Below, in pieces: positions 9,114-32,930 of a DNA stretch of 40,351 bases. Position numbers and translations under genes: made by a program. The stretch comes from a virus: positions 1 through 40,351 of the IMG/VR virus record IMGVR_UViG_3300031839_001818; one strand, given 5' to 3'. How positions within the stretch are numbered: position 1 is the first letter of the stretch; each line of letters opens with the position of its first letter. Below the pieces are notes generated by a model, which ran no database searches, had not been told where the DNA came from, and saw only the letters and a list, made by a program, of their open reading frames with translations.

Positions 9114-10396
9114 GCGGTGAGCGCCTCGACGAGGCTGCCGCCGCCAACGAAACCCGGGGCGGTGGCGTTATTGCGACCTGCGATGTCGTCGGCGTTGGCT
9201 GCCACATTGGCGGGGCCGTAGAGCTGGTGGGCGAGCACCAGGCTGGGCAGCGTTTCGTGGGCCGTGAGGCGGGCCACGCGCGCGAGATCGGCAGCACGCC
9301 GGGTCAGCGCCTCGACCACGACAGTCCGCAGGGCCTGCAGGCGGTCAAAGGTGGCGTCGTCGGCATGCTCGCCTGCGATGTCGATCTGCTCGGTGATGCG
9401 GCTGATGCCAGCGATCGCTGCGTCATACGACGGATACAGGCCACTACTGTCGCCGCGTGAGATTTCCACCAGTGCAACTTCCGCATGGCGGACGGCGATG
9501 GCGATGATGAACAGGCGCAACATGGCATCGCGGTTGGCGCGGTCACGTGCGGTCTCTGCCGGTGGAACCTCCGGCTCGCTGCGGGTTGCGGGTAGCGGCG
9601 CACCAGCGGCGTCGGTGGCAGGTTGCACCTTGACGCTGCTGCCGGCGCGGCGGGACACCGAGTGGTAGCCATCGAACAGCGTCGACAAATCGGCGGCGCG
9701 TTCAATGTTGCCCACCATCCCGGCGATGCGCTGGCCGAGATCGCCGGGCAGATCGATCAGGTCTTCAAGGGTGCGCTTGGCACCGGCCAGGGGATCGAGG
9801 ACTTCCTCGAGCACATCGTTGTAGATCGAGTCGGCCCCTTTGCGGATCGATTTAATGGCGTTTGATACCGGCTTTAGGGCCTCGGTAATGGCCGACAGGC
9901 CCCAGGCGCGGTCGCCGGCATCGGGGGTCTGGAACGCCTCGCCGAAGCGGCCTGCAGCAGTGCCATTGGCCTCGGCCGAGATCCGCGCGGTTTCGGCCTC
10001 TGCGTCGGGGACGGCGCCCGGCAGGACCGGGCTGGTGTCGAGCACGCACTCAAAGCGAAAGCTGGCGCAGTTGCCGCCTTCACGAGTGCCCTCCCGCACG
10101 CTGTACTGCTCGATGACCACACGCAGGTCGCCGCGAAACGGATGAATGAGGGTGCCGGCGCCGGGGGCATCCAGCGCGGCCTCAAGTGCGTCGCGACGGG
10201 TGGCGTAGTCGTCGCCGACAACAAATGCTTCCATCGCAAAGCGCCGCGGCCCCTGGCCGAGATCCTCGACTTCGTTGCGGTCTGACAGTGGGTATTCGTG
10301 GATGGCCAGCTTGCGGCCGCCACGGGTGTCGGCCGATTCCACTTCGAATGGCGCACCGCGAAACGAGGCTGGCAGCAGTGTGTCGCGCCAGCTCAT
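9110..10396 (-). CDS. DNA circularisation / tail protein, Mu gp43 (gpN)
   Basis: The 428-aa protein opens MSWRDTLLPASFRG, a hallmark of the 'DNA circularisation protein N-terminus' family (Mu gpN). It continues with RRFAMEAFVVGDDY and ALDAPGAGTLIHP. In Mu this protein is a tail/baseplate component needed for infection; the circularisation name is historical. The C-terminal half is helical and less conserved. A 79-bp gap separates it from the tape-measure gene; that gap holds a GC-rich CGCGCGCGCG run and no gene. Confidence 0.92.
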   Translation of the reverse strand: MSWRDTLLPASFRGAPFEVESADTRGGRKLAIHEYPLSDRNEVEDLGQGPRRFAMEAFVVGDDYATRRDALEAALDAPGAGTLIHPFRGDLRVVIEQYSVREGTREGGNCASFRFECVLDTSPVLPGAVPDAEAETARISAEANGTAAGRFGEAFQTPDAGDRAWGLSAITEALKPVSNAIKSIRKGADSIYNDVLEEVLDPLAGAKRTLEDLIDLPGDLGQRIAGMVGNIERAADLSTLFDGYHSVSRRAGSSVKVQPATDAAGAPLPATRSEPEVPPAETARDRANRDAMLRLFIIAIAVRHAEVALVEISRGDSSGLYPSYDAAIAGISRITEQIDIAGEHADDATFDRLQALRTVVVEALTRRAADLARVARLTAHETLPSLVLAHQLYGPANVAANADDIAGRNNATAPGFVGGGSLVEALTA

Positions 10397-10475
10397 GCAT
10401 CACTCCACGGGGACGGGGGACGGGCCATGTGCGCAGCTTCGCGCGCGCGCGGTTGCGATTCCCCCGCGAAATGCT

Positions 10476-12833
10476 TCAGCCGCCGAGCAACGGCAGCATG
10501 GGGCCAGACTGCACCTGCAGGTCGAGCCGGTCGCTCGCATCAATACGCGCTGGACGGGCGCGGCCTTGGGCGTCGATGACCAGCTCGACCCGGCCGGCCA
10601 ACGGTGCCGCTGGCGGGCCGGCTTCTGTGCGACGTTGGGCCTGCCGTAGTGCGGGCTCTGCTGCCGGCGCCGGCATTGGCAACGAGGCATCGACGCGGAC
10701 CAGTGGCGCGCCAGCGGGCTGCACCGGCGGCAGGTTGACGATGGGGGCCGCATAGTCGGCCGTCGGCGTTGCCACGTTGACTTGGGGTGCCGAGGCTGCG
10801 GCGGGTCGCGGCAGCTCGAGTGCCGGTGCTGCGAGGTCGACGCGGGGCGCGGGGACCAATGGCGCAGCCGGCGCGTTGACGTTGACCGACGGCGGCAGTG
10901 GCGACGGCAGTGCGGGATACGGCGGCAGGGCCGGTGCAGCGAGATCGACGCGAGGAGTCGGTATTGCGGGCGCGGGTGCCGGCGCTGCTGGTCGGCTGAT
11001 GTATTCGATGCGCTCGGATTGTTCGGCGGGCTGCGGCAGGCTCATCCCCGCTAGCGGATCGAGGTTGATGATGGGCGGCGCCGCTACCGGCCCGGCGGGC
11101 GGCGCAATGTTGATGCGCGGCGGCGCGGCATCACGCAGGGGGTCGAGGCGCGCATCCAGCGCGTGGCGGGCATCGTCATTGCCCAGCCGGGCGAGCACGG
11201 TGGCGATGGTGCCGCCCAGGCGGTCGGCGAATGCGGTGGTGTCGATCTTGTCGTAGAGGTAGCTGCCCGCGACATAGCCGCCACCGAATGCCAGCGCGGG
11301 TGCAACTGCGCCCATCGGATTGGTCGGGCTGATGCCCTTGAGCCCGGGCAGCTGGCGCGCCAACCAGCCGGTGGCTTTCTTGGCAGCCTCGCCGGCAACG
11401 ATGCCGCCCGCCACGTCGCCCATGCCGAGGCCGCCCGCACCACCGCCGCCGAGCCCACCGGCGGGCCAGTTGGTGATGAACACGGGCTGCACGCCGGTGA
11501 CCTGCTCCAGCGCCTTGCCCTGGGCAACGCCGGCGGCGGTACCGGCGGCGTCGCCCAGCACGCGGCCGGCGATACCGCTGATGGCGCTCGGCAGTTGGCG
11601 CATGAGGGTGGCCAGCACGCTGCCGCCCACCAGAGCAGCGCTGCCCCAGCCGATGACTTCGGCATTGGACAGCTCCATGCCGCCCTCGGCTTTCGGTGCC
11701 AGGCTGAAGCTGACGGCGTCGGCAAACGCCTTGTTGACCGGCTTGGCGAAGGTGTCGCCCACCTCGCGCATGACGGTCTTGAGGCGGGCGGCCTGGTCGA
11801 TTGCGTTGTCGAGGGCGATGTCGAGGTCGCGCTCGATGGTGCCGCCGGCGGAGCGGATCTCGTCCGCCATCTCGGTCCACTGTTCCAGTGTGTTGCCAGC
11901 GAGCAGCGTGCGCAGGCCACGCTGGGTGTCGAGGTCGGTCTGGCCGAAGGCATCGGCGATGAAGGTGTCGCGCGCCAGGTCTGACTGCAGCGCCTGGTAG
12001 GCGGTGGCGATGTCCTGGAGGACGTCGACGGGATCGCGTGCGCTGTCGTCGGCGTTATAGAAGGAGACGCCGGTGGCCTTGGCGGCTTCGGTCTTGTAGC
12101 GATTGTTGGTGAACAACCGCAGCGTGCTGTCCGCGAGCGTGGCCAGGCGTTCGGGGTTGCGCTCGATCTGGCTGAGGGCTTCGATGAAGCCGAGAGTGTC
12201 GGCAAACGCCAGGTTGGCGGACTTGGCGTTGACCCCGACCCGGGCAAAGATGCCGCTGAGGTCTTCCAGCTCGGCATTGCCGAGCCTGCCGGCGACCGTC
12301 ATCTGGTCGAGCAGTGTGGCGGCGATGCCCGGTTGCGCCAGGTCAAACCCGTAGCTGCGGGCGGCGACGGTGAGGCCGCCGGCCAGGACGTCTTCCGGTG
12401 CACCGGTAACGGCGCTGGCGGGGTTGATGGAGCGGATCGAGGCGAGCGCCTGCTCCCACTCGGCGCCCGCCTGGATGAGATTGTTGAAGCCGCCCTGCAG
12501 CGATTCCAGCGGCCGGCCGGTATCCCGCGCCATGCGGAAGATCTCGCCGCGCAGATCGCGCACCTGGGATGCGGTGCCGCTGGCAGTCAGGCGGATCTGC
12601 GTCAGATCCTTGTCGAGCTGGCCCGACATGCGCTGGTTGGCCAGCGCACCAATGCCGAGGCCCAGGCCAAGAATGGTGCGCTGGACACCGCCGACCACCT
12701 TGTCGAGCTGCAGGGCATCGCGCTGCATGCTGCGGGTGGTGCCGGTCCAGTTCTGGCCGGTGCGGCGGATGCCGGCATCGAGCCCGCGTGATTCGAGGAA
12801 CAGGCGGAGGGCGACGTCGAGGTTCTTGCTCAT
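10476..12833 (-). CDS. Tail tape-measure protein (Mu gp42)
   Basis: The 785-aa protein sets tail length and is threaded through the tube. It starts MSKNLDVALRLFLESRG and has a helical N-terminal region that fits the phage tail tape-measure TP901 domain, with glycine-rich hydrophobic segments in the middle (GGSVLATLM, GGGYVAGSYLY). From about residue 560 onward it is an unusual Pro/Ala-rich linker with two copies of PRVDLAAPAL (near 10815-10846 and 10927-10955). A compact basic end follows (GRVELVIDAQGRARP). It follows the tail chaperone frameshift product by three bases, the conserved order in contractile and siphoviral tails. Confidence 0.92.
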   Translation of the reverse strand: MSKNLDVALRLFLESRGLDAGIRRTGQNWTGTTRSMQRDALQLDKVVGGVQRTILGLGLGIGALANQRMSGQLDKDLTQIRLTASGTASQVRDLRGEIFRMARDTGRPLESLQGGFNNLIQAGAEWEQALASIRSINPASAVTGAPEDVLAGGLTVAARSYGFDLAQPGIAATLLDQMTVAGRLGNAELEDLSGIFARVGVNAKSANLAFADTLGFIEALSQIERNPERLATLADSTLRLFTNNRYKTEAAKATGVSFYNADDSARDPVDVLQDIATAYQALQSDLARDTFIADAFGQTDLDTQRGLRTLLAGNTLEQWTEMADEIRSAGGTIERDLDIALDNAIDQAARLKTVMREVGDTFAKPVNKAFADAVSFSLAPKAEGGMELSNAEVIGWGSAALVGGSVLATLMRQLPSAISGIAGRVLGDAAGTAAGVAQGKALEQVTGVQPVFITNWPAGGLGGGGAGGLGMGDVAGGIVAGEAAKKATGWLARQLPGLKGISPTNPMGAVAPALAFGGGYVAGSYLYDKIDTTAFADRLGGTIATVLARLGNDDARHALDARLDPLRDAAPPRINIAPPAGPVAAPPIINLDPLAGMSLPQPAEQSERIEYISRPAAPAPAPAIPTPRVDLAAPALPPYPALPSPLPPSVNVNAPAAPLVPAPRVDLAAPALELPRPAAASAPQVNVATPTADYAAPIVNLPPVQPAGAPLVRVDASLPMPAPAAEPALRQAQRRTEAGPPAAPLAGRVELVIDAQGRARPARIDASDRLDLQVQSGPMLPLLGG

Positions 12834-19399: not shown

Positions 19400-19518
19400 A
19401 CTCATTCAGCCGCGCCCCGCAAGGCCCCCTGAAATGCTTCGCCGCGCTTGGGGCGGGGCTGAGATCAATCTAGCAGGGGACCGCAGCCGGTGCTACCTGC
19501 TTAAGCCGGAGGAATTTA

Positions 19519-26755: not shown

Positions 26756-28630
26756 TTATGCCTCCTGGTGGGGATTGGGGTCGGCGACGCCGGGGACGTA
26801 GCCGAAGGATTCGTGGATCTCGACAAAGCCCTCGCACTCGGCGCTGCGGGCATATGCGTCGGCCCAGGCGAGCTGGCTGGGCGGTACGGGCTGGTCGGCG
26901 GCGATATCGGCCCGGAGTTGCAGCCAGCGTCCGTACCGGTGCTCGGGCGTCTCCTCAGCTGCTTCGGCGGCGGCGAAAGTCTGCTGCACCTCTGCCAGCT
27001 CGGCTGCGTCGACGGGGCGCGGCGCGGTTGGCGTGGGGATGTGTACGGCGGGGATGTGGATGCTGTGGCCCAGTGCCAGCGGCGCCGATGGCGGCGCCTC
27101 AACGGCTGGCGCCTGGTCGGCGTCGAGCGCCTCCACCATCGCAGCGGCGGTCAGCGGCTGGCGGGCGCGGGCGCCGGCTTCGTCCAGGTGCGCCTGCAGG
27201 CGCCTTTGCTGCCCAGCCAAGCGGCGCTGCTGCCCCTCTTCGATGCGACTAGAGGGCAGCCAGGGCGTCTTCTCGACGAGATGGGCGATGCACACCAGTC
27301 GGCCGTCCTGGTCATTCACCCAAACGTGGGCGTCGTCGTGGATGGAGTACTCGACCACCACCTTGCGAGCCTCGTAGGCCCGCAACTCGGCGGCGCGGTA
27401 CCAACGGCCATCCAGCTTCACGCCCCAGCGCTGTACGGTGCGCTCCACGCGCGGCCGCAGGATTGCCTCGGCCGGGGTATGCAGAGGGGTGCGCTCCAGC
27501 TGGGCCCACAGGTCGGCTGGGCGGCATCCCAATGCCGTCTGAGGATTGATGTTGTAACGCTCGAAGTACCGGCGCACGGCGTGTATGTATTCCTCCAGCG
27601 TCGGCAAGCGAATCTCGCCACGGCGCACCTTGGTAGTCAGAGCGCGCAGGAAATCGTCGGATCGGTCATGCCCGCAAAAGGTGTTGAACTCTTTGCCGCA
27701 CCGCTCTTCAAACCAGCGGAACCAGCCCTCGGTGAGCCCCTTGCCCTTGGCATTGCCGGGCAGCGCCAGCATCGGCTCGATGCTGAACCGGGCGCAGTAG
27801 CCGGTGACTTCGTCGCTGATCATCCGGTTCTTGAAGCCGCTGCCGGGGTCGGTATGCACGGCGGCCGGCACGTGGTCGTGGTCGATCAGGGCGCGGCTAA
27901 GCGAGAACAGCGTGGTGTGCGCGCTCTCCGCCTCGCTCATCCACCAGCCGACGACGTACTGGCTGCGCACGTCGATCCACACCGTGATCTCGGGGCGGAA
28001 CGGTTTGCCGGTGGCCGGGTGCGCCACATAGACGTCGCAACAATGTCCGTCGGCTTGGTACACGTAGCCCACCGGCAGCACCGTGTTGTCGCGGATGACG
28101 AAGGGCCGCACGTTCTGGTTGTAGTAGTGCTGGCCGAGGCGTGCCGGTGATGTCTCGCAGGCATGCGACGGCATGCTCTTCAGGTAGCGCTCGACGGCCT
28201 TGTTGTTGGCGTCGTCGTACCCCTCACCGCGTAGCCAGAATGCGACCGTGGCGTAGGCTGGCTTTGTGGGGCGGTTGTACAGCTCCAGCGCACGTGCCTC
28301 CCAGCCGCGCTCCTTTCGCTGCCTGCCGCTGTACTTCGTCGCCAGCCCGATCACGCCCTCGTTGAGATACGCGCGGATCCACCGCTGCAGCGTACTCACG
28401 CTGGGCATGCCATCGGCCGTGGTCGCCAGCCATTCCGCTACCGCCCGTACGGCCACGCCTTGCTGCACCCGCATGATGGCGGGGCGGATCATCGCGCTGC
28501 GGCGCAGCGCCTGGTCGCGAGCGTGCTGCGGCAGTTGCTGCAGCGGGTCGACCGGGATTGTGACTGCCGGGATCGGCAGCGCGGCGGTGGACCGGCGGGG
28601 TGCGGGGAGCTGGCGTGCGGTGGCGGGCAT
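26756..28630 (-). CDS. DDE transposase (MuA/TnsB type)
   Basis: The 624-aa protein catalyses strand transfer of phage ends. It has N-terminal helix-turn-helix segments (VRAVAEWLATTADG, STLQRWIRAYLNEG), then an RNase-H-like core. The likely catalytic triad is D194 (YQADGHCCD), D261 (HTDPGSGFKN) and E301 (GLTEGWFRWFEE), with spacings of 66 and 39 residues between them, normal for the family. A Mu-type C-terminal beta-barrel (YRAAELRAYEARKVVVEYS) and an Ala/Gln-rich tail that may contact the ATPase follow. Its substrate should be the repeats at 92-140 and 40144-40261. Confidence 0.95.
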   Translation of the reverse strand: MPATARQLPAPRRSTAALPIPAVTIPVDPLQQLPQHARDQALRRSAMIRPAIMRVQQGVAVRAVAEWLATTADGMPSVSTLQRWIRAYLNEGVIGLATKYSGRQRKERGWEARALELYNRPTKPAYATVAFWLRGEGYDDANNKAVERYLKSMPSHACETSPARLGQHYYNQNVRPFVIRDNTVLPVGYVYQADGHCCDVYVAHPATGKPFRPEITVWIDVRSQYVVGWWMSEAESAHTTLFSLSRALIDHDHVPAAVHTDPGSGFKNRMISDEVTGYCARFSIEPMLALPGNAKGKGLTEGWFRWFEERCGKEFNTFCGHDRSDDFLRALTTKVRRGEIRLPTLEEYIHAVRRYFERYNINPQTALGCRPADLWAQLERTPLHTPAEAILRPRVERTVQRWGVKLDGRWYRAAELRAYEARKVVVEYSIHDDAHVWVNDQDGRLVCIAHLVEKTPWLPSSRIEEGQQRRLAGQQRRLQAHLDEAGARARQPLTAAAMVEALDADQAPAVEAPPSAPLALGHSIHIPAVHIPTPTAPRPVDAAELAEVQQTFAAAEAAEETPEHRYGRWLQLRADIAADQPVPPSQLAWADAYARSAECEGFVEIHESFGYVPGVADPNPHQEA

Positions 28631-30524: not shown

Positions 30525-30995
30525 GTGCAGGATTCGTTACCCGCTCGATTGAGGGCGGTTCGTGAGGCCTCGGGCCTCAACCAGACCGATTTCGCAGCGC
30601 TGGGGGGAGTCTCCAAGCGTTCGCAGATCATGTACGAACAGGGGAAGGCCGACCCGGCCGCCACTTACCTCGCGCAGCTGCTCGAACAGGGTGTGGATGT
30701 GATGTTCGTGTTGACCGGTACGCCTGCGACCACAACCCCGGCAGGCCCTGCCGTTTCAGCTGCCGATGCGGTGCAGATCACCATCGAGCTGATTGATGAG
30801 TTGGGGCTGCAGGGAAAGTTGCCGATGGAAGCGATACGGCTGCTGACGGCTTGGGTAGTCGAGCAGCGGGCCACGAAAGACCAGGCGCGTGCATTTCTAT
30901 CTGCCGGGCTTTCTATCGGACAATCAGACAAGGATGGGAGCGCACGCTCTGCGCAACCTATTCCGGCGCGGAGAAGAAAGAAGCACACAGAGTAG
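30525..30995 (+). CDS. Phage repressor with N-terminal HTH
   Basis: The 156-aa product starts at GTG 30525, right after an AAGGGGG ribosome site. Its helix-turn-helix covers residues about 7-45 (LRAVREASGLNQTDFAALG, then SKRSQIMYEQG), followed by TYLAQLLEQGVDVMFVLTG, typical of phage Xre repressors. The C-terminal half is helical and lacks the Ser-Lys peptidase of LexA/CI types. Induction by RecA self-cleavage is therefore not expected. It is the rightward side of the switch and should silence the early promoter. Confidence 0.88.
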   Translation: MQDSLPARLRAVREASGLNQTDFAALGGVSKRSQIMYEQGKADPAATYLAQLLEQGVDVMFVLTGTPATTTPAGPAVSAADAVQITIELIDELGLQGKLPMEAIRLLTAWVVEQRATKDQARAFLSAGLSIGQSDKDGSARSAQPIPARRRKKHTE

Positions 30996-31023: not shown

Positions 31024-31575
31024 ATGTCTGAACAAGAGTGGTTCTATGCATGGCTGGCCGCGTGGGGTGTGTGCGGTGGCCTGATCGCGGCGATCTTCAG
31101 AACGTGGAACCCGTTCCACCTGGTGGGCGGTGGGTTTATTGCGTCGCTGGTGGTGGGGATCGGCGTTTTCGAGTGGCAGGACTGGAGAGGCGCATCCGAG
31201 AGTTCCGCCACTAAGGCGGCAGTCACTGAGTCGGCCCCATCGGTCGCTACGACGGCGCCGATCTCGCCGTCCGAGATGACGTTCGCACACAAGGTCGCCA
31301 TCGTCAGCGCGGGCACATATCTGCCGCCGGATCACCTCAAGGTGAAAAGGACACGGTACCTACTGCAATCGCTGTCAGAGAAGTCGGGCGAGCCTGAGGA
31401 GCGTGTGGGCGATATGGCAGCCACAACACGCAATCTGATCGAAGAACGATATGGCAAGCGCTACACGGTGATTCAACTGCTGGAGTTGGCGAACAGTGAG
31501 GAGACGGTGCGGGATGGAACCATCGGCCTTCAGCAGTATTGGGCGCTGGTCGCAACCCTGGCAGCAGACCTGTAG
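31024..31575 (+). CDS. Two-helix membrane protein in repressor transcription unit (candidate lysogenic cargo)
   Basis: The 183-aa protein has two membrane helices (WFYAWLAAWGVCGGLIAAIF, then LVGGGFIASLVVGIGVF), a Ser/Thr/Ala linker (residues about 60-85) and a soluble helical domain. That domain includes DHLKVKRTRYLLQSLSEKSG and TRNLIEERYGKRYTVIQLL. CAGGAGG lies ahead of ATG 31024. No family is recognised. It lies 28 bases behind the repressor on the same strand and is separated from the lysis genes, so it may be expressed in the lysogen. Immunity against other phages is a plausible but unproved role. Confidence 0.75.
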   Translation: MSEQEWFYAWLAAWGVCGGLIAAIFRTWNPFHLVGGGFIASLVVGIGVFEWQDWRGASESSATKAAVTESAPSVATTAPISPSEMTFAHKVAIVSAGTYLPPDHLKVKRTRYLLQSLSEKSGEPEERVGDMAATTRNLIEERYGKRYTVIQLLELANSEETVRDGTIGLQQYWALVATLAADL

Positions 31576-31587
31576 CGGAGCTGAGTG

Positions 31588-32358
31588 ATGTCGATACCCG
31601 CCAGCAAGCCCACCGCAAACCACCGTCCCCCAGCCTGGGTGATTCTCGTCACCGTCGCATGGCTGGCGCTTATAGCTGGGGCTGCCTGGTGGAAATGGGA
31701 CAGCCTCTGCCAGATGGGCCTGAACGAGCTGGGCGATTTCGCCGCTGGTGCGGCGGCGCCGCTGGCGTTTTTCTGGTTGATCGCCGGGTACTTTCAGCAG
31801 GGGATCGAGCTGCGGCAGAACACTGAAGCGCTGCGCCTGCAGGCGGAAGAGTTGGCGAGGTCGGTTGAGCAGCAGAAGGCCTTGGCAACGGTCGCAGCTG
31901 AGCAGGCGACGGTAGCCAAGAAAGCGTGGGAAGAACAAAGAAGGGAGCTGGAGCGATCGCACCAACCGCGACTAGCCTTGGCGAAAGAATTTATGAAGGG
32001 AGATCGTGCCGGGAACTTGGTTCTTTTCGACATTGAGATCAAGAATCTTGGCAGCCCTCTCTTTGAAGGAGAATTCCACTTTGATCGCGTGGCAACAGGG
32101 CCCACACCACGGATGTCTGGAGACACTTACGGACGATTTGTCATCCCAGCGGCTGGAAGCGCTCACTTTCGATTCGTGACCGATATCAATGATCCTGAAG
32201 ACAGTCATGCCACGCTCCATTATCTCGATGGAATGGGAGAGCGCCAGGAGATGCACCTTGCACTTCATCGTTACGATACGAATAAACTGAAGGCACTACT
32301 CCTACATTGGGTAGAAGTTCACGCTGCAGAGCTTGAACTGGGCGACTGCGACATTTAG
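31588..32358 (+). CDS. Membrane protein with coiled coil and C-terminal beta domain (candidate lysogenic cargo)
   Basis: The 256-aa protein has two membrane helices (residues about 17-34 and 50-68), then a coiled coil (EALRLQAEELARSVEQQKA and onward to about 120). A beta-rich C-terminal domain follows (NLVLFDIEIKNLG, then FEGEFHFDRV). GGAG eight bases ahead of ATG 31588 sets the start. Base composition shifts visibly toward A/T over the last 350 bases compared with the phage genes, which suggests recent acquisition. The layout recalls membrane proteins found among phage and defence cargo, but I cannot name a family. Confidence 0.75.
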   Translation: MSIPASKPTANHRPPAWVILVTVAWLALIAGAAWWKWDSLCQMGLNELGDFAAGAAAPLAFFWLIAGYFQQGIELRQNTEALRLQAEELARSVEQQKALATVAAEQATVAKKAWEEQRRELERSHQPRLALAKEFMKGDRAGNLVLFDIEIKNLGSPLFEGEFHFDRVATGPTPRMSGDTYGRFVIPAAGSAHFRFVTDINDPEDSHATLHYLDGMGERQEMHLALHRYDTNKLKALLLHWVEVHAAELELGDCDI

Positions 32359-32392
32359 CGAAGCGTTTCAGGGGCTTTTCACCGGGTTGACC

Positions 32393-32409
32393 TGCCGACA
32401 CTGTCGGCA
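32393..32409. promoter_or_regulatory. Dyad TGCCGAC-ACT-GTCGGCA at the head of the lysis/head operon
   Basis: A perfect 7-bp inverted repeat overlaps the first base of the lytic enzyme ATG. A TTGACC lies just upstream at 32387-32392, but no -10 box follows. The position suggests a binding site for the Mor-like activator or another late regulator. The 50 bases from 32359 otherwise hold no gene. Confidence 0.55.
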
Positions 32410-32930
32410 TGGACACCGGCATCCACATCATCCTCCGCCACGCGGCACGCAAGCACGGCGTGCCCGCAGCATTGGCTGTAGCCATTGCGGTCGTTGAGAG
32501 CCGCCTCAATGCGTGGGCGCACCGTGCGGAGCCGGCATATCGCTATCTGTGGGATGTGCGGCACAACGCACCATTCCGTCTCACGGGTGTCCAGGCTGCT
32601 GAGAAGCGACCACCGCCGGGCTTCCCTTCACCTGCTGGCATCTCTTCACTTTCCGAGTGGCAGGCCCAGCAGGCGAGTTGGGGCCTGATGCAGGTGATGG
32701 GCGCAGTTGCTCGCGAGTACGGGCTGCAAGGTCCGATTCCGCAGCTGCTGGACCCAACCCTCGGCGCCGACTACGGCTGCCGGCACCTGGCGGTGCTGCG
32801 CAAGCGGTTCCCATCTGCTGGCTGGCGCGGTGTCGCGCAGGCCTACAACTCCGGCAGCCCCAGTGCGGCGAACGGCTACCCCGACAAGGTGGCGGCGGCT
32901 GGCTATTCGTTTTCACAGGGAGGTGAGTGA
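32409..32930 (+). CDS. Lytic transglycosylase (SLT-type endolysin)
   Basis: The 173-aa protein has the soluble lytic transglycosylase layout: AVAIAVVESRLNAWAH with the catalytic Glu at position 30, then SWGLMQVMGAVAREYG (the GLMQ motif), and AYNSGS near the end. It cleaves the peptidoglycan glycan strand at lysis. There is no signal peptide, so release depends on the holin encoded next. No good ribosome site precedes the ATG, which lies in the dyad above. Confidence 0.9.
   Translation: MDTGIHIILRHAARKHGVPAALAVAIAVVESRLNAWAHRAEPAYRYLWDVRHNAPFRLTGVQAAEKRPPPGFPSPAGISSLSEWQAQQASWGLMQVMGAVAREYGLQGPIPQLLDPTLGADYGCRHLAVLRKRFPSAGWRGVAQAYNSGSPSAANGYPDKVAAAGYSFSQGGE

What the first reader, a model, noticed from the sequence alone, without database searches (positions are those of the whole stretch)
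31024..32358. Two membrane proteins behind the repressor: candidate lysogen-expressed defence pair
Both genes follow the repressor on its strand, both have two N-terminal membrane helices and soluble C-terminal domains, neither is a known phage function, and the second is A/T-shifted. They are the best candidates here for an undescribed two-gene system, for example superinfection exclusion.
Basis: inference. Interest (0 to 1): 0.7.

Follow-up and report, generated by a model that had tools for sequence, protein, structure and literature searches.

The report
Prophage membrane protein with swappable domain
Next to its silencing gene, a Mu-like phage carries two membrane-protein genes; one is unique, and the other belongs to a large unnamed prophage family that keeps the same membrane anchor but exchanges the immunoglobulin-like domain on its end, as expected of a recognition protein, although its function has not been tested.

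Summary
In detail: two genes (31024-31575, 31588-32358) follow the XRE repressor, each with two N-terminal membrane helices. The window is a KS10/TJ1-like transposable phage.

In relatives, the slot between repressor and lysis genes holds variable cargo, enriched in membrane proteins (19/41 against 74/507). One relative carries a two-gene PADLOC defence candidate there.

A conserved palindromic late-promoter-like element sits at the second gene's stop codon, before the head operon (19426-19442), and ahead of the lysis genes in 24 of 27 relatives. So the pair lies in the repressor's transcription unit, not the late one (inferred).

The pair is not a conserved system: the first gene is an orphan. 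The second belongs to a large family with no Pfam entry, found as single accessory genes in unrelated prophages and at chromosomal sites. Its anchor is constant; its cytoplasmic Ig-like C-domain is hypervariable. Pairs with at least 90% identical anchors share a detectable C-domain in only 40% of cases. In two Acinetobacter genomes flanks and anchor match while the C-domain is replaced.

Best reading: a lysogen-expressed, membrane-tethered recognition protein, probably for phage exclusion. Exclusion itself is untested.

The parts
30525..30995 (+). XRE-type repressor (156 aa), first gene of the inferred lysogenic transcription unit
   Evidence: PF01381 E 6e-6; 49% identical to the syntenic L173 protein and 40% to KS10 gp13 over the HTH
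31024..31575 (+). P0001: orphan gene, two TM helices, S/T/A-rich linker, helical C-terminal part (183 aa)
   Evidence: translation, hydropathy, low-confidence all-helical model, pLDDT 54; no relatives
31588..32358 (+). P0002: membrane-anchored Ig-like protein (256 aa), member of a large unnamed family (PHROG 9267)
31633..31962 (+). P0002 constant module: TM1 (res 16-34), periplasmic loop, TM2 (51-69) and continuous coil to res 125; G+C about 63%
   Evidence: AlphaFold helices 16-35 and 45-125; 59% mean pairwise identity over res 40-97 in 133 relatives
31972..32316 (+). P0002 variable cytoplasmic Ig-like beta-sandwich (res 129-243), G+C about 50%
   Evidence: strands at 129-243; adaptin-ear/ApaG-like beta-sandwiches, Z 6.5-7.7, rmsd 2.7-4.6 over 87-102 residues; G+C step at codons 101-121
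32358..32374 (+). Late-promoter-like palindromic element GCGAAGCGTTTCAGGGG, overlapping the P0002 stop codon
   Evidence: 17/17 match to the copy at 19426-19442 under the pattern GCGAAGCRTTTCAGGGG; same position in 24 of 27 relatives against 7.6% of random stretches
32397..32402 (+). -10-like hexamer GACACT at about the conserved spacing from the palindrome (one base further than the consensus); SLT ATG follows 6 nt later
   Evidence: column conservation over 38 sites
32409..32930 (+). SLT-type lytic transglycosylase, first gene of the lysis/terminase operon
   Evidence: PF01464 E 1e-10; 55% identical to L173
19426..19442 (-). Second copy of the late-promoter-like element, before the head operon
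26756..28630 (-). MuA-type transposase (phage identity)
   Evidence: phrog_310 E 3e-101; 45% identical to KS10

Best explanation
The two genes are accessory cargo in the lysogenic (repressor) transcription unit of a KS10-like transposable phage. They end exactly where the late lysis/terminase promoter seems to begin, so they are most likely made in the lysogen (inferred). P0002 is the interpretable one: an inner-membrane protein, N-in and C-in, with a constant TM hairpin and coiled-coil stalk carrying an exchangeable cytoplasmic Ig-like domain. Most likely mechanism (inferred): the anchor holds oligomers at the inner membrane, the variable Ig-like domain binds a variable protein of an incoming phage that arrives at the inner membrane or cytoplasm early in infection, and binding blocks genome entry or triggers membrane failure. 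Lineages change specificity by swapping the Ig-like domain. P0001 is a separate orphan cargo gene of unknown role; a P0001-P0002 partnership is possible only in this phage lineage.
For: Slot: in relatives the repressor-to-lysis interval carries 1-4 mostly unrelated genes, 19/41 with a TM against 74/507 of other genes, p 4e-6; L187's slot holds PADLOC PDC-M41A and B, E 3e-74 and 2e-119. Transcription: late element at 32358-32374, same 17-base pattern at the head operon, ahead of the lysis genes in 24/27 relatives against 7.6% of random stretches, with a -10-like hexamer at near-fixed distance; precedent in the Fc02 lysogen transcript. Family: single accessory genes antisense to early operons, between Rz and terminase, inside other Mu-like prophages, and at the parE 3' end or the Acinetobacter icd/pseudouridine-synthase locus. 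Topology: N-tail net charge exceeds loop charge in 99% of 141 members. Variability: anchor 59% against C-domain 14% mean pairwise identity; of 96 pairs with at least 90% identical anchors only 40% share a detectable C-domain; in L045/L069 flanks and anchor are mostly 80-97% identical, the C-domain is at random level, and identity returns right after the stop codon; L045/L063 shows the reverse, with a C-domain more similar than the flanks.
Against: No expression or phenotype data. P0001 is an orphan, so partnership cannot be tested by conservation. No family member has a known function and none matches a validated defence system. A variable Ig-like domain could serve anything under diversifying selection, such as competition or envelope signalling. 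The family is patchy on chromosomes outside prophages too (8/197 genomes of the order of G009). It was retrieved with anchor patterns, which overstates anchor conservation in the set as a whole (not in the same-locus pairs).
Confidence: 0.42

Rival explanations
1. Non-defence lysogenic conversion: P0002 is a fitness cargo gene of the host envelope (for example regulation, stress or rivalry between bacteria), with the Ig-like domain binding a host or competitor protein.
For: Family members also sit at fixed chromosomal sites: behind parE in Rhodobacterales and near icd/pseudouridine synthase in Acinetobacter. No neighbour-level link to known defence genes was established.
Against: Prophage cargo positions dominate among the viral loci, and C-domain replacement at a fixed locus suggests an arms race rather than a housekeeping role.
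Confidence: 0.28
2. P0001 and P0002 form a two-gene defence system, with P0001 as effector or immunity partner of P0002.
For: 12-nt spacing, same strand, similar architecture; a relative carries a two-gene defence candidate in the same slot; tandem P0002-family genes exist (L033, L043, L163).
Against: No P0001 relative near any P0002 relative or elsewhere; P0002 relatives are mostly alone.
Confidence: 0.15
3. The genes belong to lysis (an antiholin-like or lysis-timing membrane protein), being next to the lytic transglycosylase.
For: Adjacency to the lysis cassette here; ten relatives lie beside lysozyme/Rz genes.
Against: The late-promoter-like element separates the pair from the lysis genes; a complete holin follows (PF25612 and the PHROG holin family); many relatives are antisense to lytic operons.
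Confidence: 0.05
4. Neutral or decaying cargo without current function in this phage.
For: P0001 is an orphan; low-G+C recent acquisition.
Against: Open frames with good ribosome sites, invariant anchor residues kept (G49, D50, G54 in all 133), confident fold.
Confidence: 0.1

Closest known systems
PHROG 9267 (function unknown)
   Same: P0002 matches over residues 40-159, E 7e-31; same anchor and coil
   Different: PHROG gives no function; the Ig-like C-domain falls mostly outside the match
Lysogen-expressed superinfection exclusion genes at the repressor of B3-like transposable phages (Fc02 olg1/sie1; PMC9936078)
   Same: Transposable phage; accessory genes next to the repressor in the lysogen transcript; exclusion shown there
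   Different: Olg1 is a 7.9-kDa soluble protein encoded upstream of the repressor; its described features (small, soluble) differ from P0002, sequences were not compared here
SNIPE (PMC13190303)
   Same: Inner-membrane N-terminal anchor with cytoplasmic C-terminal part acting at genome entry; N-terminal and recognition parts diversify
   Different: SNIPE has DUF4041 and a GIY-YIG nuclease; P0002 has neither, only an Ig-like domain without enzyme signature
PDC-M41 candidate (PADLOC) in the same slot of L187
   Same: Same position between repressor and the lysis genes in a KS10/TJ1-like phage
   Different: Different proteins: P0001 and P0002 match no PDC-M41 model
KS10 gp11/gp12 and TJ1 thermonuclease/hypothetical
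   Same: Same slot, same orientation relative to repressor and late element
   Different: No sequence similarity to P0001/P0002

Membership tests
PHROG 9267 / P0002 family | Anchor motif LNExGDFxAGxxxPxAxxWLxxGYxQQGxEL | tested here: met
Superinfection exclusion protein | Made in the lysogen | tested here: inconclusive
   Position between repressor and late element only; no RNA data
Superinfection exclusion protein | Excludes other phages when expressed | not testable with these tools
   Needs plaquing assays
Superinfection exclusion protein | Located at the cell envelope (common, not universal) | tested here: met
   Two TM helices, charge bias N-in/C-in; by prediction only
Two-gene defence system | Partner genes conserved together | tested here: not met
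   No P0001 relative beside any P0002 relative; P0001 orphan
Known or candidate systems in PADLOC 2.0 | Match to a system protein model | tested here: not met
   None for P0001/P0002 beyond chance; only weak scattered coil hits in 133 relatives
SNIPE | DUF4041 and GIY-YIG nuclease | tested here: not met
   No such Pfam match in P0002 or relatives
Phage holin/spanin/lysis protein | Match to lysis families and late transcription | tested here: not met
   No PHROG lysis match; the genes lie upstream of the late element
KS10-like transposable phage | MuA, repressor/early divergence, and terminase-portal on the strand opposite to head and tail genes | tested here: met

The most novel reading that the evidence does not exclude
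P0002 typifies an unrecognised class of prophage-borne innate recognition receptors in bacteria: a constant inner-membrane anchor and stalk with a recombinationally exchanged cytoplasmic Ig-like domain that sets which invader is excluded.
Probability: 0.27. Interest if true: 0.82.

Novelty: new variant of a known kind. Interest (0 to 1): 0.5.

Why it matters
Prophages are a main source of new phage-exclusion genes, and the slot behind the repressor of KS10-like phages is now a defined, bounded place to look. The P0002 family has no Pfam entry, is almost absent from the 50,697 records of the public phage collection, and shows whole-domain replacement at a fixed locus, which gives natural allele pairs that differ mainly in the Ig-like domain. 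That makes specificity directly testable.

Tried and rejected
Two-gene partnership by conservation: P0001 has no relatives in phages, viral contigs, PDB sequences or 398 Lysobacterales genomes; the few E about 0.002-0.01 hits are chance-level. Abi/CBASS-type membrane effectors: single weak Pfam hits in the family (S_4TM E 0.002, PspB, DUF4212) are few, weak and scattered and are not counted. ZorB hits (7 of 133, best E 9e-5) are best read as TM-plus-coil resemblance. P0001 structure: pLDDT 54, not searched. PDB fold hits for P0002 are generic Ig-like sandwiches (Z below 8), no functional inference. Own-promoter test by a sigma70 consensus upstream of family genes: 13% against 11% in shuffles, uninformative. 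The L143/L161/L162/L163/L046/L081 context, first labelled P2-like in my notes and script, is Mu-like by its portal (PF06074). The KS10 paper was searched for its slot genes and late promoters and nothing on them was found.

Full report
What is there. The window is a whole IMG/VR virus record of 40,351 bases, a transposable phage with a MuA-type transposase whose nearest named relatives are Burkholderia phage KS10 and Curvibacter phage TJ1. As in those phages, the repressor, lysis, terminase, portal and MuF-like genes run on one strand and the early, head and tail genes on the other. The finding's coordinates are exact: P0001 31024-31575 and P0002 31588-32358, 28 and 12 nt behind the preceding stop codons, each with two N-terminal hydrophobic segments. 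P0002 has the lowest G+C of the called genes, and the drop lies in its second half.

The slot. Loci around MuA homologues of relatives show the interval between the repressor and the lysis genes filled with one to four mostly unrelated genes: KS10 gp12/gp11, a thermonuclease and a hypothetical protein in TJ1, and four genes in L173, the closest syntenic phage. None resembles P0001 or P0002. Of 41 slot proteins 19 have a membrane segment, against 74 of 507 other genes in the same loci (odds ratio 5, p 4e-6). In L187 the slot holds both proteins of PADLOC candidate PDC-M41. So this is a cargo slot with a leaning to membrane proteins and at least one defence candidate. That is shown by sequence; function is not.

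Where late transcription starts. A palindrome with consensus GGTGAAACGTTTCACC lies between the last cargo gene and the lysis genes in 24 of 27 relatives with a called lysis gene, against 7.6% of random stretches of equal length. It recurs before the head operon and sometimes before tail genes. In the window the two main copies, 32358-32374 (+) and 19426-19442 (-), match the same 17-base pattern exactly; 0.27 matches with up to three mismatches are expected. About 36 bases into the element comes a -10-like hexamer with A at its second and T at its sixth position; in the window it sits one base further on, and the SLT start codon follows 6 nt later. This looks like an activator-dependent late promoter (inference). 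Because it begins at P0002's stop codon, P0001 and P0002 belong to the repressor's transcription unit and not the late one (inference). In the transposable phage Fc02 RNA-seq of the lysogen shows such a transcript, with repressor and flanking accessory genes, one of them an exclusion gene (PMC9936078).

P0001. No relatives were found in the phage collection, viral contigs, PDB sequences or Lysobacterales genomes, nor beside any P0002 relative. Its model is poor. The pair is therefore not a conserved system.

P0002 family. An alignment seeded from five viral contigs drew 80 loci from genomes and 79 from viral contigs. The family is unknown to Pfam and PADLOC and nearly absent from the phage collection. 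Contexts: antisense within the early/recombination region of lambdoid prophages, between Rz and terminase, antisense between portal and terminase-side genes of Mu-like Acinetobacter prophages, directly behind parE in Rhodobacterales, and near the icd/pseudouridine-synthase genes of Acinetobacter. Presence is patchy: 6 of 398 Lysobacterales genomes and 8 of 197 genomes of the order of G009, a Rhodobacterales genome. These are the placements of autonomous accessory genes.

Architecture. AlphaFold2 (133 sequences, pLDDT 84) gives TM1, TM2 continuous with an 80-residue helix, then an Ig-like beta-sandwich resembling adaptin ears and ApaG at Z up to 7.5, a generic level. Charge distribution in 141 relatives puts the N-terminus and the Ig-like domain in the cytoplasm.

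Constant anchor, exchanged domain. Residues 40-97 average 59% pairwise identity, the Ig-like part 14%. Among 96 pairs with at least 90% identical anchors only 40% have detectable C-domain similarity. Retrieval by anchor patterns inflates the first number but not same-locus pairs: between A. tandoii (L045) and A. kanungonis (L069) the flanks and the first 210 bases of the gene are mostly 80-97% identical (one upstream insertion apart), identity falls to random from base 300 to the stop codon and returns at once behind it; L045 and L063 show the opposite, a C-domain more alike than its surroundings. This is replacement by recombination at the coil (the pattern is shown, the mechanism inferred).

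Interpretation. A membrane-tethered, cytoplasm-facing, rapidly exchanged binding domain made from the lysogenic transcription unit fits a recognition protein that excludes incoming phages, and I give this 0.42. Non-defence lysogenic conversion is the main rival. No step beyond sequence, position and predicted structure is shown.

Noticed in passing
32358-32374 (+), 19426-19442 (-), 10468-10477 (-) and loci L171-L212: Late-promoter-like signature of KS10-like phages: palindrome GGTGAAACGTTTCACC, about 26 nt, then a -10-like xAxAxT hexamer, often with ATG 6-10 nt later (possible leaderless late mRNAs). Its core TGAAACGTTTCA equals, from memory, the enteric Cra/FruR operator; whether a phage Mor-type protein or a host regulator binds it is open.
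   Followed up: partly
L187:2688-4292 (-): PADLOC candidate defence pair PDC-M41A/B in the repressor-lysis slot of a KS10/TJ1-like phage.
   Followed up: partly
32393-32409: Perfect palindrome TGCCGACACTGTCGGCA overlapping the -10-like hexamer and the SLT start codon; no second perfect copy in the window.
   Followed up: partly
L015, L026, L050, L051, L053-L055, L058, L066-L068, L078, L083 near position 10000: In Rhodobacterales P0002-family genes sit directly behind parE (usually overlapping by a few bases or within about 70 bp), a fixed but patchily occupied site.
   Followed up: partly
L033:1068-3262, L043:9237-10663, L163:4212-5763: Tandem copies (two or three) of P0002-family genes.
   Followed up: no
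Upstream of family genes in L031, L094, L098, L113, L119, L121, L125, L128, L131: Related leaders (GTTTTCTGTGGGCATGGGGAGTCCTC...GGTAAACTC) precede the gene in lambdoid Pseudomonas prophages; a possible own promoter or RNA leader travelling with the anchor.
   Followed up: no
Agrobacterium phage Atu_ph08 MF403009.1:13931-14209: A distant family match annotated as 'methyl-accepting chemotaxis protein', probably a misannotation from the TM-plus-coil architecture.
   Followed up: no
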